Positions 9,669-36,374 of a stretch of DNA of 53,245 nucleotides are shown one piece after another (the first letter of the stretch is position 1; each line of letters starts with the position of its first letter). The translations under genes and the position numbers were made by a program. The stretch is from positions 1-53,245 of the forward strand of contig JAURNR010000049.1 in assembly GCA_030830065.1 (NCBI GenBank), in the 5' to 3' direction. The notes below the pieces were generated by a model. The model was not told where the DNA came from and made no database searches. It worked only from the letters and a program-made list of their open reading frames with translations. Source of the DNA: Bacteroidota bacterium. GTDB taxonomy: Bacteria > Bacteroidota > Bacteroidia > NS11-12g > UBA955.

Positions 9669-10361
9669 CTAAAAGTAAAAGATAGAACCCAATTTCTCGT
9701 ATAAGTAGAAATTGATAAAGACGATGGATATTCCAATCGCTGCTCCTACAATGAGTTCGTCGTTTTTATGAGATTTTAATTGTTTTCGTGAAATAGCAAC
9801 TAAAGCAGAAATAATTACACCTATGATTATCATGTATGGTTGATTCCAAATACCATAAATTTCCCAGAATTTGTCCCAAACAACAATGTTGCTCATTGCG
9901 ATGAAAAATGTGAAGAACCCTATTACCGACAATACATGAATGCTAATTTTAAATGAAAACCGATTAAACAACCACTGAACTATTAGAGATAACAGAATAA
10001 GCTGATTCCACATAATCAGGAATTCAAATTCTAGGTTTTCTATTACCACAGACTGAGGGGTTTCAGTAGTTATGCCAATTGTGTTTTCTTGCAATACAAT
10101 ACTGGAAAAAACCAGGGCACAAATCAAAGAAAAAACTACCACCCAACTTCTATGTTTTGTTTGAGGTATTTCGAGGGATTCAAATTTACCTCGTTTAACC
10201 ATTAACCAAACAAAAACAAGCGGAATTATAGAGTGTAAGAGTAAGGAAAGCAACATATTTTGCCATAGAAACCCGCTGTTTAAACTTAAATACGAAACAC
10301 CTAGGGTTGCCCAAAATGCTGGGTATGTTGCATATGATATTGTTTTGTAAAACGCTTTCAT
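9669..10361 (-). CDS. Multi-pass membrane protein of unknown function
   Basis: Several hydrophobic segments; start codon abuts the stop of the upstream M1 peptidase gene. Confidence 0.7.
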   Translation of the reverse strand: MKAFYKTISYATYPAFWATLGVSYLSLNSGFLWQNMLLSLLLHSIIPLVFVWLMVKRGKFESLEIPQTKHRSWVVVFSLICALVFSSIVLQENTIGITTETPQSVVIENLEFEFLIMWNQLILLSLIVQWLFNRFSFKISIHVLSVIGFFTFFIAMSNIVVWDKFWEIYGIWNQPYMIIIGVIISALVAISRKQLKSHKNDELIVGAAIGISIVFINFYLYEKLGSIFYF

Positions 10362-13300
10362 TTAAAATGATTTTTCTATGCCCATGATAAAACGAAATTG
10401 TAAATTTCCTTTGTCTACAGGGTTAGTGACATTCAAGAAAAAGGGAAAGTCAAACCTGAAAACTATTGGCTTTGTATCATTTAGAATTTTTTTATTTATG
10501 AAGTGATTGAGGTTTGTAAAATTCAACGTTGTTCCTATTCCACCATCCATGAGTATCCCACTGTTAATAAATGAATTTTTTTCCTCCCAGCCAATGATAC
10601 CGGCATCATAAAAAGCATAAGGAGATATCTTGAAATATTTGTTTTTCAATAATCCATTAAAGAGATTACCCAGCTGCCATTCTAAATTTAGAGAAGCCCC
10701 TGAAGTTCCTCTAAAGAAGGCATAAACACTATCGTTTGAGGTTCTTCCAATAACGCGATTTTGATAACCTCTTAAGTTTAAACCACCACCGTAATGAAGC
10801 GTATTTGGTATTCCAATACGTACAGGAGGTTGTGATTTTTGATATTGAAAGGGTAGTATGGCCACGTTGCCCCAATTTCTCATTATTGAATTATCGAACT
10901 GCGTTTCAGGATTTGCTGATGCAGCATATAAAGCAGATTCAGGTGAGGGGTTTTTGCCTCCTCCATATTGAGCAAATGTCCGGATTAATAATATTGTTTT
11001 TAGTATGGGCTGTTTATGCTTCCACTCCATGTTGATATAACCAAATTGAGTGTTACTCCAAGGGGAAGGAAGCCTTGTTTCAAAATTAATTGAACCAGAT
11101 TTTCCCCATTTTTGGTAATTCATTTTCCAGAATAAATTCATGGAAATATTGGATTGATTTTGCCATAATGATTGAACTGGAATTACACCGGAAAACGCTT
11201 TTTCTTGATATGCAGAGTGTTGGATAAAACTACTTGTAATTAATTGAGGCTCGGAAGGAGTTTTAACCTCTTCTGCGGTTCCACCCATTATTCGACTATA
11301 CATCCCGAAAGTGTGTTTTCCTACACTAAAATCCCAACCGATATCATTCTTGTAGCGTTGGTTCATGTAAATTAAATTAGAAAAATATCTTCCACCTTTT
11401 TTTACCTCATTAGACCAAAAAGCGTCTACACCAATTTTCTGAGCAGGAACGTTAATTCCTAATCCATTAATTCCAGAATTATTCCAGTAATAATATGTTC
11501 TTATGTCAAAAACATGTTTTCTAGCAGCGTATTGGCCACTTATTTTTAGACCTGTTCCTAAACCAGAATATTGATTAAAATCTAGTGTGGGTCGGTATAA
11601 TAAATGGTAGGGCCCAAGGAACGAATAATTTGCTCCATTACCCCAATCTAAACTCCAATGTCTTCGGCCTCTCCATACATTATCGGGCCGGTAAACATCC
11701 GCAAGCTGCCCACTTGGATCAATCCAAACCTGATCTAATTTACTAGAAGGCTCCAGTTGAATCTCAAATGAAAAATCTCTTCTGAGGTTGTTCCATCCCT
11801 TCCAAATTTCTGTGTGTAAACGAGAAGGTACTTTAAAGTGTGTAACGGGTATTCGCAATTGAGTAACTTCTATGCGCTTTTTCTTATCTTTTGAAAAAGT
11901 AGAGAGAAGATCCACATCCAACGGCATGATCATTTCACCTTTTCGCTTTACATGGATTTTATATTTCGAATCTCCTAAATCTTCTACCTTTTTTACGGCA
12001 TAATCTACGCTTTTGTTAGATTCAAACCACTGGTCAAAAAATTTGGTCAAATCTGTTTGAGCGCTTGCTGTAATTGAATTTCTAAAATCTTCGATATATG
12101 GGTGGCAGAACTTCCAACGCTCTACATAATCTTGCATAGCTGTGAAGAAAATGGAATCACCCAAATAGTATTTTAAGTTATACAGCATGGTTGCAGTCTT
12201 ATAATAAACGTGTCCGTATCCTCCTCCATGTCGAACACCGTCACCGAATTCATTGCTGTGGGTATTTAAGAACGCATCTTCACCATCCATTGCATCGTTT
12301 AAATACCCGGCAAAAACTCTGTTGTATTCAGGGTAAGATTCAACACGAAAAGTCCGCATTGCAAAAGCAGTTAAAAACTGAGTGAATCCTTCGTCTAAAG
12401 CAGCTCTGTAAGTTTCGTTACTTCCAAGCATACCCATAAACCAATTGTGACCTACTTCGTGAGCAATTAGACTTTTATGGCTTGGATAATATCCTCCACA
12501 CAAGGTAAGCATCGGATATTCCATTCCGTCCGCTGCGTCAGCAACAACAATTTTAGGATATTCATACAAACCAAATACATTGCTGTATAGGGAAATTACA
12601 TCTTTAAGAAAGTCAGCCGTTTCTTGCCATCTACCTGCATTGTTTTCTTGCGCTAGTGCGACGCATTTTATACCATTCCATTTTACTTCATGTCTTCTAT
12701 ATGTTGGGTCGGCAGTCCAGGCAAAATCATGAACATTAAAGGCATAGTATTTCCAAGTTTTTGTTTTGTTGGAAGGGGGAATTATTTCTGACGGACTTTC
12801 TCCAATTGCTTTGCCTTCAAAATTTTGAATGTCGATTTGCTTCTTCAGACTCTCTGGCAGAACCTCTTCCTCATTAATAAGACTGCCAGTGGCTTCTATA
12901 ATATATTGTTCGGGTAACTCAAGTTCAACAAGAAATTCGCCAAAATCTCCGTAAAATTCTTTCTCAAGATGTTCGTCTGTTTCCCAACTAAACTTCTCAT
13001 CAAAAACACAAATTCGCGGATACCAGTGAACTCCGTTAAAGTGTTTAACCCCATGATGTTCGTATACTTTCATTCGGCGTCGGATACTTCCACGGTCGAA
13101 ATAAGTTTTGAAAACAATATTAAATTTACAACTATCACCGGGCAACAGGTGATAGGGTAGATCAACTTGCATAATGGTGCCATCTAAGCGGTATCCTAGG
13201 TAAGGGTCATCATTATTATTTTTATGATCTAAAACTTCACCATTAACCTTAATCTCAGATATTTGGGTGCCTAATTTTTGTTTTTCATAAGGTCCATAAT

Positions 13301-13634
13301 TTACATTAAGTTTATTGAGTTTGTAAAGGTCATCTGTGAGAGATTCGGGTTGGAAAGAATTCTGATAAAGGTGAAAAAATGCTTCCTTTTGTATGTGCGG
13401 AGAATTATTGTAATAAGTTAATTCTAAACTTCCGTATATAATTTCTTTCTCGTCATCGAGCTTGGCTTTGATATGGTAAGAAACATCTTGTTGCCAATAT
13501 GAACTATGTGGAGACTTTTTTTTCCAATATCGTGAATTATCAGAGCTCCTGTAAAAACCGAGAGAATTTTGAGCTTCACTATATGCACTAACAAAAAGAG
13601 TAAGAATAACAATACTAATTCTAATATTTACCAT
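10362..13634 (-). CDS. M1-family (gluzincin) metallopeptidase with C-terminal Omp85-like outer-membrane beta-barrel
   Basis: Signal peptide; HEVGHNWFMG (12438-12461) followed by DEGF; C-terminal ~430 aa of alternating strands with GGGLNLRGYQNR (10755-10790) and terminal Phe (RFIMGIEKSF). Confidence 0.85.
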   Translation of the reverse strand: MVNIRISIVILTLFVSAYSEAQNSLGFYRSSDNSRYWKKKSPHSSYWQQDVSYHIKAKLDDEKEIIYGSLELTYYNNSPHIQKEAFFHLYQNSFQPESLTDDLYKLNKLNVNYGPYEKQKLGTQISEIKVNGEVLDHKNNNDDPYLGYRLDGTIMQVDLPYHLLPGDSCKFNIVFKTYFDRGSIRRRMKVYEHHGVKHFNGVHWYPRICVFDEKFSWETDEHLEKEFYGDFGEFLVELELPEQYIIEATGSLINEEEVLPESLKKQIDIQNFEGKAIGESPSEIIPPSNKTKTWKYYAFNVHDFAWTADPTYRRHEVKWNGIKCVALAQENNAGRWQETADFLKDVISLYSNVFGLYEYPKIVVADAADGMEYPMLTLCGGYYPSHKSLIAHEVGHNWFMGMLGSNETYRAALDEGFTQFLTAFAMRTFRVESYPEYNRVFAGYLNDAMDGEDAFLNTHSNEFGDGVRHGGGYGHVYYKTATMLYNLKYYLGDSIFFTAMQDYVERWKFCHPYIEDFRNSITASAQTDLTKFFDQWFESNKSVDYAVKKVEDLGDSKYKIHVKRKGEMIMPLDVDLLSTFSKDKKKRIEVTQLRIPVTHFKVPSRLHTEIWKGWNNLRRDFSFEIQLEPSSKLDQVWIDPSGQLADVYRPDNVWRGRRHWSLDWGNGANYSFLGPYHLLYRPTLDFNQYSGLGTGLKISGQYAARKHVFDIRTYYYWNNSGINGLGINVPAQKIGVDAFWSNEVKKGGRYFSNLIYMNQRYKNDIGWDFSVGKHTFGMYSRIMGGTAEEVKTPSEPQLITSSFIQHSAYQEKAFSGVIPVQSLWQNQSNISMNLFWKMNYQKWGKSGSINFETRLPSPWSNTQFGYINMEWKHKQPILKTILLIRTFAQYGGGKNPSPESALYAASANPETQFDNSIMRNWGNVAILPFQYQKSQPPVRIGIPNTLHYGGGLNLRGYQNRVIGRTSNDSVYAFFRGTSGASLNLEWQLGNLFNGLLKNKYFKISPYAFYDAGIIGWEEKNSFINSGILMDGGIGTTLNFTNLNHFINKKILNDTKPIVFRFDFPFFLNVTNPVDKGNLQFRFIMGIEKSF

Positions 13635-34445: not shown

Positions 34446-36374
34446 ATGCGAATAGTTGGGTTACTTCTTTTAACCATAAGCTTGCAATCATCTGCTCAAA
34501 TTGACAACGAATACAGTTGTGCTCATAAAAGTCAATTTGAAAGAACATTGCATGTCGGAAAAAGAGCGGGTGAAGCAGATTTTTATGGTTACAATATCTT
34601 ATATCATAAGTGTTTCTTTGAGGTTAACCCCAATAGAGGTTCTGATTTAAAAGGAAGGGTATTGTTTCATGTTAATGTTGAAGGTGACTATGATTCTCTA
34701 ATCTTTGATTTGAAAAATGAACTTACTATTGATTCAGTTTTGCACCTAGGTAAAAAGACAAGATTTGATCACAATATTGATAAAGTTAAAGTATTTAAGA
34801 ATGACGGCACACAGTGGTTAGAAAATTCTATAGACAGTTTTGAAGTTTATTATCATGGTAACCCTGCATCAATAATTGGTGGTTTTGGATCCTATGTATA
34901 CGACAATCATGCTACTGGTCCGGTTATACATACCCTTTCAGAACCATACGGTGCACCATTTTGGTGGCCTTGTAAACAAACCTTGTACGACAAAATTGAT
35001 TCCATAGATATTTTTGTTTACACCGACAGTAGTTTCAAGTCCGGCTCAAATGGTTTACTTGTTAATACGAGCTATGTTGATTCAGGATATCACTTGATAC
35101 ATTGGAAGCATAGATATCCAATAACTACTTACCTAGTGGCAATAGCCGTAACAAATTATTCGGAGTTTACAGATTATGCTCACTTTCATAATCGTAATGA
35201 TTCAATGCCAGTTGTTAATTACGTATTCCCTCAATTTTTAGAATCTGCAAAAGAACAAGCAAAGGTTACGATTCCCATGTTGCGTTTGTTCGATAGTTTA
35301 TTTATTGAGTATCCTTTTATGAAAGAGAAATATGGTCACTCTCAATTCACATGGGGTGGTGGAATGGAGCACCAAACAATGAGTTTTATGGTGAATTTTT
35401 CTTTTGATCTTATTGCCCATGAATTGGCTCACCAATGGTTTGGAAATGTTATTACATGTGCTTCATGGAACGACCTCTGGTTGAATGAAGGATTTGCTAC
35501 ATATTTAACAGCACTTACACACGAATATTTAATATCCTCTGAGGATTTTAAAAACCAAATGCGAGGTATGCGCGGTTCGATTACTTCAGATCCTAATGGA
35601 GCAGTTTACCCATCGGACACCTCACGTGTAAACGTATTGTTTAATGGGAGGTTGCGCTACCAAAAAGGCGCATGGCTTTTACACATGTTGAGACACAAAA
35701 TTGGAGATTCGCTATTTTACGAAGGCAACAGACGATATCTAAATACACTAAAGGTAAAAGGGTTTGCCACAACCCAAGATTATAAAAATATAATGCAGCA
35801 GGTATCCGGACAGGATTTAGAATTATTTTTTTATCAGTGGTTTTATGGGGAAGGTCATCCAAATTTAAAAATCAATTGGCGTCAACGAGCAAACCAGGTG
35901 AAAGTTGAGATTTCACAAACTCCATCTAACGTAAACGTGCCATTTTGGAGAATTCCCGTACCAATTTTATTCGCCAATGGAAGTGACAGTCAATTGATTA
36001 TTTTTTATCCGGATTCGTTGAATAAAGTTTACAATATTGAGCTTCCATTCTCGGCAGACACTGCTATTTGGGATCCTGAGGTTAGTGTACTTGCGAAAAC
36101 ATCTATAGGTGGTGTGAATTTAGATAAAATTCAAGAGGATGAAATCGTAGTATTTCCTAATCCTGGTCAAGGTGAATTTAAACTAGTTTCGCGAAATCCA
36201 AATATTAATCAAGTAGAAGTTTATAACTCACTTGGACAATTAGTCCTTAATGAGGATTTTTATGGAGTACAGAACTGTGACATAAGTTCCAAAAGCCTTA
36301 GTGATGGGGTGTTTTACATTCGCATATACACTGACAATTTTGTATATTTGAAGATATGGTCGTGCGTAAAATAA
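34446..36374 (+). CDS. M1-family aminopeptidase with T9SS type A sorting domain
   Basis: HELAHQWFGN (35418 onward) ...WLNEGFATY; C-terminal VFPNPGQGEFKL...VEVYNSLGQLV. Confidence 0.92.
   Translation: MRIVGLLLLTISLQSSAQIDNEYSCAHKSQFERTLHVGKRAGEADFYGYNILYHKCFFEVNPNRGSDLKGRVLFHVNVEGDYDSLIFDLKNELTIDSVLHLGKKTRFDHNIDKVKVFKNDGTQWLENSIDSFEVYYHGNPASIIGGFGSYVYDNHATGPVIHTLSEPYGAPFWWPCKQTLYDKIDSIDIFVYTDSSFKSGSNGLLVNTSYVDSGYHLIHWKHRYPITTYLVAIAVTNYSEFTDYAHFHNRNDSMPVVNYVFPQFLESAKEQAKVTIPMLRLFDSLFIEYPFMKEKYGHSQFTWGGGMEHQTMSFMVNFSFDLIAHELAHQWFGNVITCASWNDLWLNEGFATYLTALTHEYLISSEDFKNQMRGMRGSITSDPNGAVYPSDTSRVNVLFNGRLRYQKGAWLLHMLRHKIGDSLFYEGNRRYLNTLKVKGFATTQDYKNIMQQVSGQDLELFFYQWFYGEGHPNLKINWRQRANQVKVEISQTPSNVNVPFWRIPVPILFANGSDSQLIIFYPDSLNKVYNIELPFSADTAIWDPEVSVLAKTSIGGVNLDKIQEDEIVVFPNPGQGEFKLVSRNPNINQVEVYNSLGQLVLNEDFYGVQNCDISSKSLSDGVFYIRIYTDNFVYLKIWSCVK
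36343..36350 (+). promoter_or_regulatory. -7 box for MbnP-like gene
   Basis: TATATTTG inside the 3' end of the peptidase gene, 5 nt before the ATG at 36356. Confidence 0.5.

What the first reader, a model, noticed from the sequence alone, without database searches (positions are those of the whole stretch)
10362..13634. M1 metallopeptidase fused to an Omp85-like outer-membrane barrel
Seen: a signal peptide, then HEVGHNW (aa ~392) with a downstream DEGF, then ~430 residues of aromatic-rich alternating strands ending in Phe. The barrel part contains GGGLNLRGYQNR (aa 949 onward), matching the (V/L)RG(Y/F) loop-6 motif of the Omp85 superfamily. Known: patatin-Omp85 fusions (type Vd) put an enzyme and its barrel on one chain. 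Inference: this is a peptidase version of that architecture, anchoring or displaying an M1 peptidase at the outer membrane. I see no clear POTRA domain between the two parts.
Basis: partly seen in the sequence, partly recalled or inferred. Interest (0 to 1): 0.7.

Follow-up and report, generated by a model that had tools for sequence, protein, structure and literature searches.

The report
M1 peptidase fused to Omp85 barrel
This gene encodes a zinc peptidase joined end-to-end to a membrane barrel of the Omp85 family; it is a widespread, apparently undescribed enzyme-barrel fusion in Bacteroidota that probably holds the peptidase on the inner face of the outer membrane.

Summary
The 1090-aa minus-strand ORF (10362-13634) is a signal peptide, a three-domain M1 metallopeptidase with conserved zinc ligands and catalytic residues, and a 16-stranded C-terminal barrel. 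The barrel carries both defining Omp85 motifs at the right places: LRGY in the loop between strands 11 and 12 (L6) and FxDxG on strand 13, both invariant in 51 relatives. The top 50 PDB matches of the barrel are all BamA. Pfam's Omp85 model misses this barrel, so the family is annotated only as M1.

It is not a one-off. The barrel occurs in 167 of 296 genomes sampled in the class, nearly always in ~1080-aa ORFs; those checked carry the M1. Each half also exists alone: M1-only (~615 aa), barrel-only (~420 aa), and at one conserved locus the barrel with or without its M1.

'Surface display' is not supported. Sixteen strands and a C-terminal Phe put the N-terminal enzyme in the periplasm, and PlpD, the model for the type Vd analogy, is now known to keep its enzyme in the periplasm. 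No POTRA domain fits between the parts.

Best reading: a peptidase tethered to the inner face of the outer membrane, substrate unknown.

The parts
10362..13634 (-). Whole gene, 1090 aa: signal peptide + M1 metallopeptidase + Omp85-type barrel
   Evidence: Single ORF, ATG to stop; same architecture in orthologues across the class
13566..13634 (-). N-terminal signal peptide, about residues 1-23 (type I, no lipobox cysteine)
   Evidence: Hydrophobic N-terminus ending SAYSEAQ, read from the sequence; helix 2-24 in the model
11718..13517 (-). M1 metallopeptidase, domains I-III (about residues 40-639)
   Evidence: Pfam PF01433 1.1e-13 over 386-536; Foldseek IRAP/ERAP1/APN, best E 5.5e-25 over about 640 columns; ~615-aa M1 proteins align over residues 44-654
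12384..12461 (-). Zinc site HEVGHNWFMGMLGSNETYRAALDEGF, residues 392-417 (zinc ligands H392, H396, E415; catalytic E393)
   Evidence: All four residues invariant in 28/28 orthologues
12513..12527 (-). Exopeptidase motif, GMEYP at 370-374 (variant of GXMEN, Asn to Tyr)
   Evidence: G370, M371, E372, Y373 invariant in 28/28; position
12198..12209 (-). Catalytic Tyr region VYYK, residues 476-479 (Y477 invariant)
   Evidence: (Y477 invariant); equivalence with E. coli PepN Tyr381 is from own knowledge
10365..11609 (-). 16-stranded Omp85-type barrel (residues 676-1090)
   Evidence: AlphaFold2; Foldseek, top 50 all BamA, E 1.6e-9 to 1.3e-7, probability 1.00
10764..10787 (-). L6 lid motif GGLNLRGY, residues 950-957 (R955)
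   Evidence: Lies between model strands 11 (880-894) and 12 (978-987); GGLN.RG invariant in 51/51
10599..10613 (-). Strand-13 motif FYDAG, residues 1008-1012 (D1010)
   Evidence: Inside model strand 13 (1001-1018); F, D and G invariant in 51/51; motif definition in PMC4490367

Best explanation
The protein is exported by Sec. [quoted passage not shown] The N-terminal M1 metallopeptidase, in the place where other Omp85 proteins carry POTRA domains, is thereby fixed on the periplasmic face of the outer membrane. There it most likely trims or destroys peptides or unfolded polypeptides close to the membrane, such as failed or incoming outer-membrane clients or imported peptides. Shown computationally: the gene structure, intact M1 active-site residues, Omp85 motifs, strand number, wide conservation and domain modularity. 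Inferred: periplasmic side, enzymatic activity, substrate. My confidence is about 0.95 for the M1 + Omp85 architecture, 0.8 for the periplasmic side and 0.3 for quality control or peptide trimming as the biological job.
For: M1: Pfam, Foldseek to IRAP/ERAP1/APN, H392/E393/H396/E415/E372/Y477 invariant in 28. Barrel: 16 strands with the RG loop between strands 11 and 12; Foldseek top 50 all BamA; paired (V/I)RG(Y/F) and (F/G)xDxG signature as defined in PMC4490367, present in 51/51; profile-profile match to bona fide small PF01103 proteins at 90% probability over the RG motif, against 0.2% for TonB-dependent receptors. Conservation: 167/296 genomes in the class. Modularity: barrel-only proteins, M1-only proteins, barrel with or without M1 at the same nadC-BrkB locus in one genus. 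Periplasmic side: even strand count, long loops mostly after odd strands (17, 43, 83, 15 residues) and mostly short turns after even ones, C-terminal Phe, and the PlpD precedent.
Against: Pfam's Omp85 model does not recognise the barrel in any of 28 members, and profile matches to BamA and TamL proper are weak (0.4% and 10%). Foldseek TM-scores are moderate (best about 0.50, rmsd about 10 A or more). Two turns on the supposed periplasmic side are long (13 and 18 residues). GXMEN is GMEY here, so classical aminopeptidase specificity is not assured. The neighbouring genes are housekeeping genes and give no functional lead. Model coordinates could not be inspected, so the M1-barrel orientation and the R955-D1010 distance were not measured.
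Confidence: 0.8

Rival explanations
1. Surface display: the barrel exports its own M1 domain, which then sits on the cell surface as an anchored ectopeptidase that feeds on environmental peptides.
For: Single-chain enzyme + Omp85 layout like the patatin-Omp85 proteins; M1 ectopeptidases exist in other organisms (own knowledge).
Against: The type Vd model was revised: PlpD's enzyme stays in the periplasm. The enzyme is N-terminal to strand 1 of a 16-strand barrel, i.e. on the periplasmic side; a domain of about 600 aa would have to pass a barrel closed by a conserved L6 lid. A T9SS C-terminal signal is not possible because the C-terminus is the barrel.
Confidence: 0.12
2. Barrel as an assembly or translocation factor: the Omp85 barrel works as an insertase or translocase like BamA or TamA, and the M1 domain is a built-in quality-control peptidase for its clients. 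This is a sharper version of the best explanation, not exclusive of it.
For: Both Omp85 lid-lock motifs are invariant, as in insertases and translocases; the barrel is kept when the M1 is absent at the same locus, so the barrel has a job of its own.
Against: No POTRA domain for client handling; separate PF01103 proteins of BamA and TamL size are present in the same genomes; PlpD suggests that Omp85 barrels can serve other roles.
Confidence: 0.25
3. Peptide uptake channel: the barrel admits peptides, which the attached M1 enzyme degrades at once on the periplasmic side.
For: Enzyme placed at the inner mouth of the barrel (topology inferred); many Bacteroidota live on peptides (own knowledge).
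Against: The conserved L6 lid suggests a closed barrel; no conserved peptide-transport neighbour; Omp85 barrels are not known as nutrient channels (own knowledge).
Confidence: 0.15
4. Not Omp85: the C-terminus is an unrelated outer-membrane barrel, and the RG motif is coincidental.
For: No Pfam Omp85 hit; moderate TM-scores; one group of related M1 proteins of about 1000 aa has a C-terminal region without the motif.
Against: Two signature motifs at the correct loop and strand in 51/51 sequences; the top 50 PDB matches are all BamA; 90% profile match to PF01103 proteins, against 0.2% for the TonB-dependent receptor control.
Confidence: 0.04

Closest known systems
PlpD / patatin-Omp85 family (type Vd; Pseudomonas aeruginosa PlpD, Fusobacterium FplA)
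   Same: Soluble enzyme at the N-terminus and 16-strand Omp85 barrel at the C-terminus on one chain; for PlpD the enzyme is periplasmic (PMC11116518)
   Different: M1 metallopeptidase in place of a patatin lipase; no POTRA between the parts; barrel not recognised by the Pfam Omp85 model; found here in Bacteroidota
The 'Metallo' Omp85 subfamily of Heinz and Lithgow 2014 (PMC4104836)
   Same: Catalytic domain fused to an Omp85 barrel, with a non-POTRA N-terminus
   Different: Its domain is PF00149, named Metallophos in Pfam (a phosphoesterase family by own knowledge, though the paper calls it a metalloprotease). The present domain is PF01433, a true M1 peptidase, which the paper's text does not mention
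'noNterm' Omp85 proteins (Heinz and Lithgow 2014)
   Same: Omp85 barrel with no N-terminal domain; barrel-only homologues of about 420 aa of our barrel exist
   Different: The window protein carries M1. Its barrel-only homologues have no Pfam hit
M1 aminopeptidases (PepN, ERAP1, IRAP; ~615-aa M1 proteins of Bacteroidota)
   Same: Domains I-III, HEXXHX18E, catalytic Tyr
   Different: GMEY instead of GXMEN; no helical domain IV, the barrel follows domain III directly
BamA / TamA (TamL)
   Same: 16-strand barrel, L6 RG(Y/F) and strand-13 FxDxG motifs
   Different: No POTRA domains; weak sequence-profile similarity

Membership tests
Peptidase family M1 | HEXXHX18E zinc site with catalytic Glu | tested here: met
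   H392, E393, H396, E415; invariant in 28; all 29 class loci whose ORF reaches this region carry it
Peptidase family M1 | Profile and fold match | tested here: met
   PF01433 1.1e-13, above the curated cut-off; Foldseek IRAP 5.5e-25
Peptidase family M1 | GXMEN exopeptidase motif | tested here: inconclusive
   GMEY, Glu kept, Asn replaced by Tyr, invariant in 28
Peptidase family M1 | Zinc-dependent peptidase activity | not testable with these tools
   Needs biochemistry
Omp85 superfamily | C-terminal 16-stranded barrel | tested here: met
   16 long strands counted from the secondary structure of two AlphaFold2 models; barrel closure not measured
Omp85 superfamily | (V/I)RG(Y/F) at the tip of L6 | tested here: met
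   LRGY 954-957 between strands 11 and 12; RG invariant in 51/51. First position is Leu here, Ile or Val in some relatives
Omp85 superfamily | (F/G)xDxG on strand 13 | tested here: met
   FYDAG 1008-1012 in strand 13; F, D, G invariant in 51/51
Omp85 superfamily | Structural nearest neighbours are Omp85 proteins | tested here: met
   Top 50 PDB matches all BamA; TM up to about 0.50
Omp85 superfamily | Sequence profile PF01103 (routine annotation, not itself defining) | tested here: not met
   0 of 28 members hit; indirect 90% profile-profile match to PF01103 proteins
Omp85 superfamily | POTRA domain(s) (usual, not universal: PMC4104836 lists non-POTRA subfamilies) | tested here: not met
   Linker 639-675 is too short; the domain before it is all-beta M1 domain III
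Type Vd / patatin-Omp85 | Patatin domain + POTRA + barrel | tested here: not met
   M1 instead of patatin and no POTRA; analogous architecture only, not a member

The most novel reading that the evidence does not exclude
A widespread, undescribed Omp85 subfamily in Bacteroidota couples a periplasm-facing M1 peptidase to an insertase- or translocase-type barrel, making an outer-membrane machine with a built-in proteolytic checkpoint.
Probability: 0.25. Interest if true: 0.8.

Novelty: new variant of a known kind. Interest (0 to 1): 0.52.

Why it matters
The main published survey of the Omp85 superfamily (PMC4104836) lists ten subfamilies, and none is described with an M1 peptidase. PlpD's revised topology has reopened the question of what enzyme-Omp85 fusions do. 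This family is common in one class of Bacteroidota but hidden, because annotation recognises only its M1 half. The barrel also exists alone, and one genus has it with and without its enzyme at the same locus, so the two halves can be tested apart in relatives.

Tried and rejected
Pfam and NCBIfam for the barrel: no Omp85 hit, even over 28 orthologues or the barrel-only homologues. PDB sequence search found only M1 (apart from a chance weak hit). hhalign of the first 27-row barrel profile against local BamA gave nothing; only the smaller PF01103 proteins gave a convincing match, better with the enlarged profile. The pattern RG...FxDxG gave 0/9 in local BamA because their strand-13 motif reads FxEAG; it matched 8/9 with D/E/G allowed. 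Gene neighbourhood as a functional clue: neighbours are rsmD/coaD or nadC/BrkB housekeeping genes, conserved but uninformative. An adjacent M1 gene beside the barrel-only proteins was sought and not found. Literature searches for an M1-Omp85 fusion found none.

Full report
The ORF. The gene lies on the minus strand at 10362-13634 and encodes 1090 aa from an ATG. It starts with a signal peptide (MVNIRISIVILTLFVSAYSEAQ) without a lipobox. The genome is a 1.55 Mb, 70% complete assembly in 64 contigs, and the window is its contig 36. The nearest named public match, at 83% identity, is a Bacteroidota metagenome-assembled genome.

The peptidase. Pfam Peptidase_M1 matches at 1.1e-13, and Foldseek of the full AlphaFold2 model aligns about 640 columns with IRAP, ERAP1 and aminopeptidase N (best E 5.5e-25). 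H392, E393, H396, E415, E372 and Y477 are invariant in 28 orthologues. The GXMEN motif reads GMEY. Identity to the window protein averages 66% in the catalytic domain and 55% in domain I, but 34% in domain III and in the barrel. The M1 part has domains I to III and no helical domain IV: the barrel starts about 37 residues after domain III, which leaves no room for a POTRA domain.

The barrel. AlphaFold2 of residues 655-1090 with 51 relatives (pLDDT 81.6, pTM 0.82) gives 16 long strands. The 83-residue connection between strands 11 and 12 is the L6 loop and carries GGGLNLRGY. Strand 13 carries FYDAG. PMC4490367 defines (V/I)RG(Y/F) at the tip of L6 and (F/G)xDxG on strand 13 as the two signature motifs of Omp85, joined by an Arg-Asp salt bridge. 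The RG and the F, D and G are invariant in 51 of 51 sequences. The pair occurs in about 1% of composition shuffles, 11 of 406 other ORFs and 0 of 20 TonB-dependent receptors. The top 50 PDB matches of the barrel model are all BamA (E 1.6e-9 to 1.3e-7, probability 1.00), though TM-scores are moderate, at best about 0.50. By sequence profile, the barrel plus its barrel-only homologues match small PF01103 proteins of the same order at 90% probability, while the TonB-dependent receptor control gives 0.2%. Pfam's own Omp85 model matches none of the orthologues, so the family is invisible as Omp85 in routine annotation.

Distribution and modularity. A barrel profile finds 167 of 296 genomes drawn evenly from the class. 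Nearly all hits lie in open frames of about 1050-1130 aa, and of the 30 best loci the 29 whose ORF reaches the M1 region all carry HEXXHX18E (the other is cut by a contig end). In the phylum sample, one family (f85) instead has barrel-only proteins of about 420 aa, next to genes that read as NUDIX and acetate kinase, with no M1 gene nearby. Free M1 proteins of about 615 aa align with window residues 44-654, i.e. the whole M1 part and nothing of the barrel. In one genus (g30), four genomes have nadC - BrkB - M1-barrel and two have nadC - BrkB - barrel alone. Another genome has a 614-aa protein at the nadC locus with the same barrel and a different, unidentified N-terminal domain. The two halves are therefore separable modules, and the barrel appears to have a use of its own.

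A related M1 group. Other M1 proteins of about 1000 aa in the same order lack the LRG motif and have a C-terminal region that matches our barrel mainly through intermediates (intermediate set to this group 80%, direct 37%). They may be M1-barrel fusions that lost the lid motif; this was not pursued.

Which side. Sixteen strands and a C-terminal Phe put both ends of the barrel, and hence the N-terminal enzyme, on the periplasmic side. In the model the long connections follow mainly odd strands (17, 43, 83 and 15 residues), as expected for extracellular loops; two even-strand turns of 13 and 18 residues are exceptions. The type Vd display model has itself been revised: PlpD's patatin domain is exclusively periplasmic (PMC11116518). 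Display is therefore the less likely reading.

Comparison with the known. The ten Omp85 subfamilies of PMC4104836 include patatin, WD40, 'Metallo' and noNterm forms. 'Metallo' is PF00149, which Pfam names Metallophos, not an M1 peptidase. Searches of the full-text library found no description of an M1-Omp85 fusion; two 2025 papers on the Bacteroidota BAM complex do not mention a peptidase. That library holds open-licence papers only, so absence there is not proof.

Function. What is established here is architecture and conservation. The job is inferred. A peptidase fixed to the inner face of the outer membrane could clear failed outer-membrane clients, trim imported peptides, or act together with an insertase-like barrel. 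The neighbours (rsmD/coaD in the window's family, nadC/BrkB elsewhere) give no lead.

Noticed in passing
window 34446-36374 (+): A second M1 peptidase, 642 aa, with HELAHQWF...WLNEGF and no barrel motif, lies in the same window.
   Followed up: no
L183-L195, L199, L200 (~1000-aa M1 proteins of the same order): M1 proteins with a ~400-aa C-terminal region that resembles the barrel mainly through intermediates and lacks the LRG motif; possibly a second M1-barrel class.
   Followed up: partly
L155:1003-2844 (-): At the nadC locus of one genome the M1 domain is replaced by a ~200-aa N-terminal region with no Pfam hit, fused to the same barrel.
   Followed up: partly
L156:2324-5554 (+): An M1-barrel gene split by one in-frame stop codon shortly after the HEXXH motif; sequencing error or pseudogene.
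   Followed up: no
L097:917-4081 (-) and L098:411-3599 (-): Proteins of about 1055 aa with a C-terminal PF01103 barrel behind a different N-terminus that by eye looks like a propeller (WD40-Omp85 type).
   Followed up: no
L082, L083, L084: In one genus a separate 378-aa PF01103 protein lies convergently next to the M1-barrel gene.
   Followed up: no
window 9669-10361 (-): Membrane protein of 230 aa whose start abuts the stop codon of the M1-barrel gene; related genes at the same position in 5 loci compared, weak PAP2 similarity below cut-off.
   Followed up: no
PMC4104836, 'Metallo' subfamily: The paper calls the PF00149 domain a metalloprotease; Pfam names PF00149 Metallophos, so the label looks like a misnomer.
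   Followed up: yes
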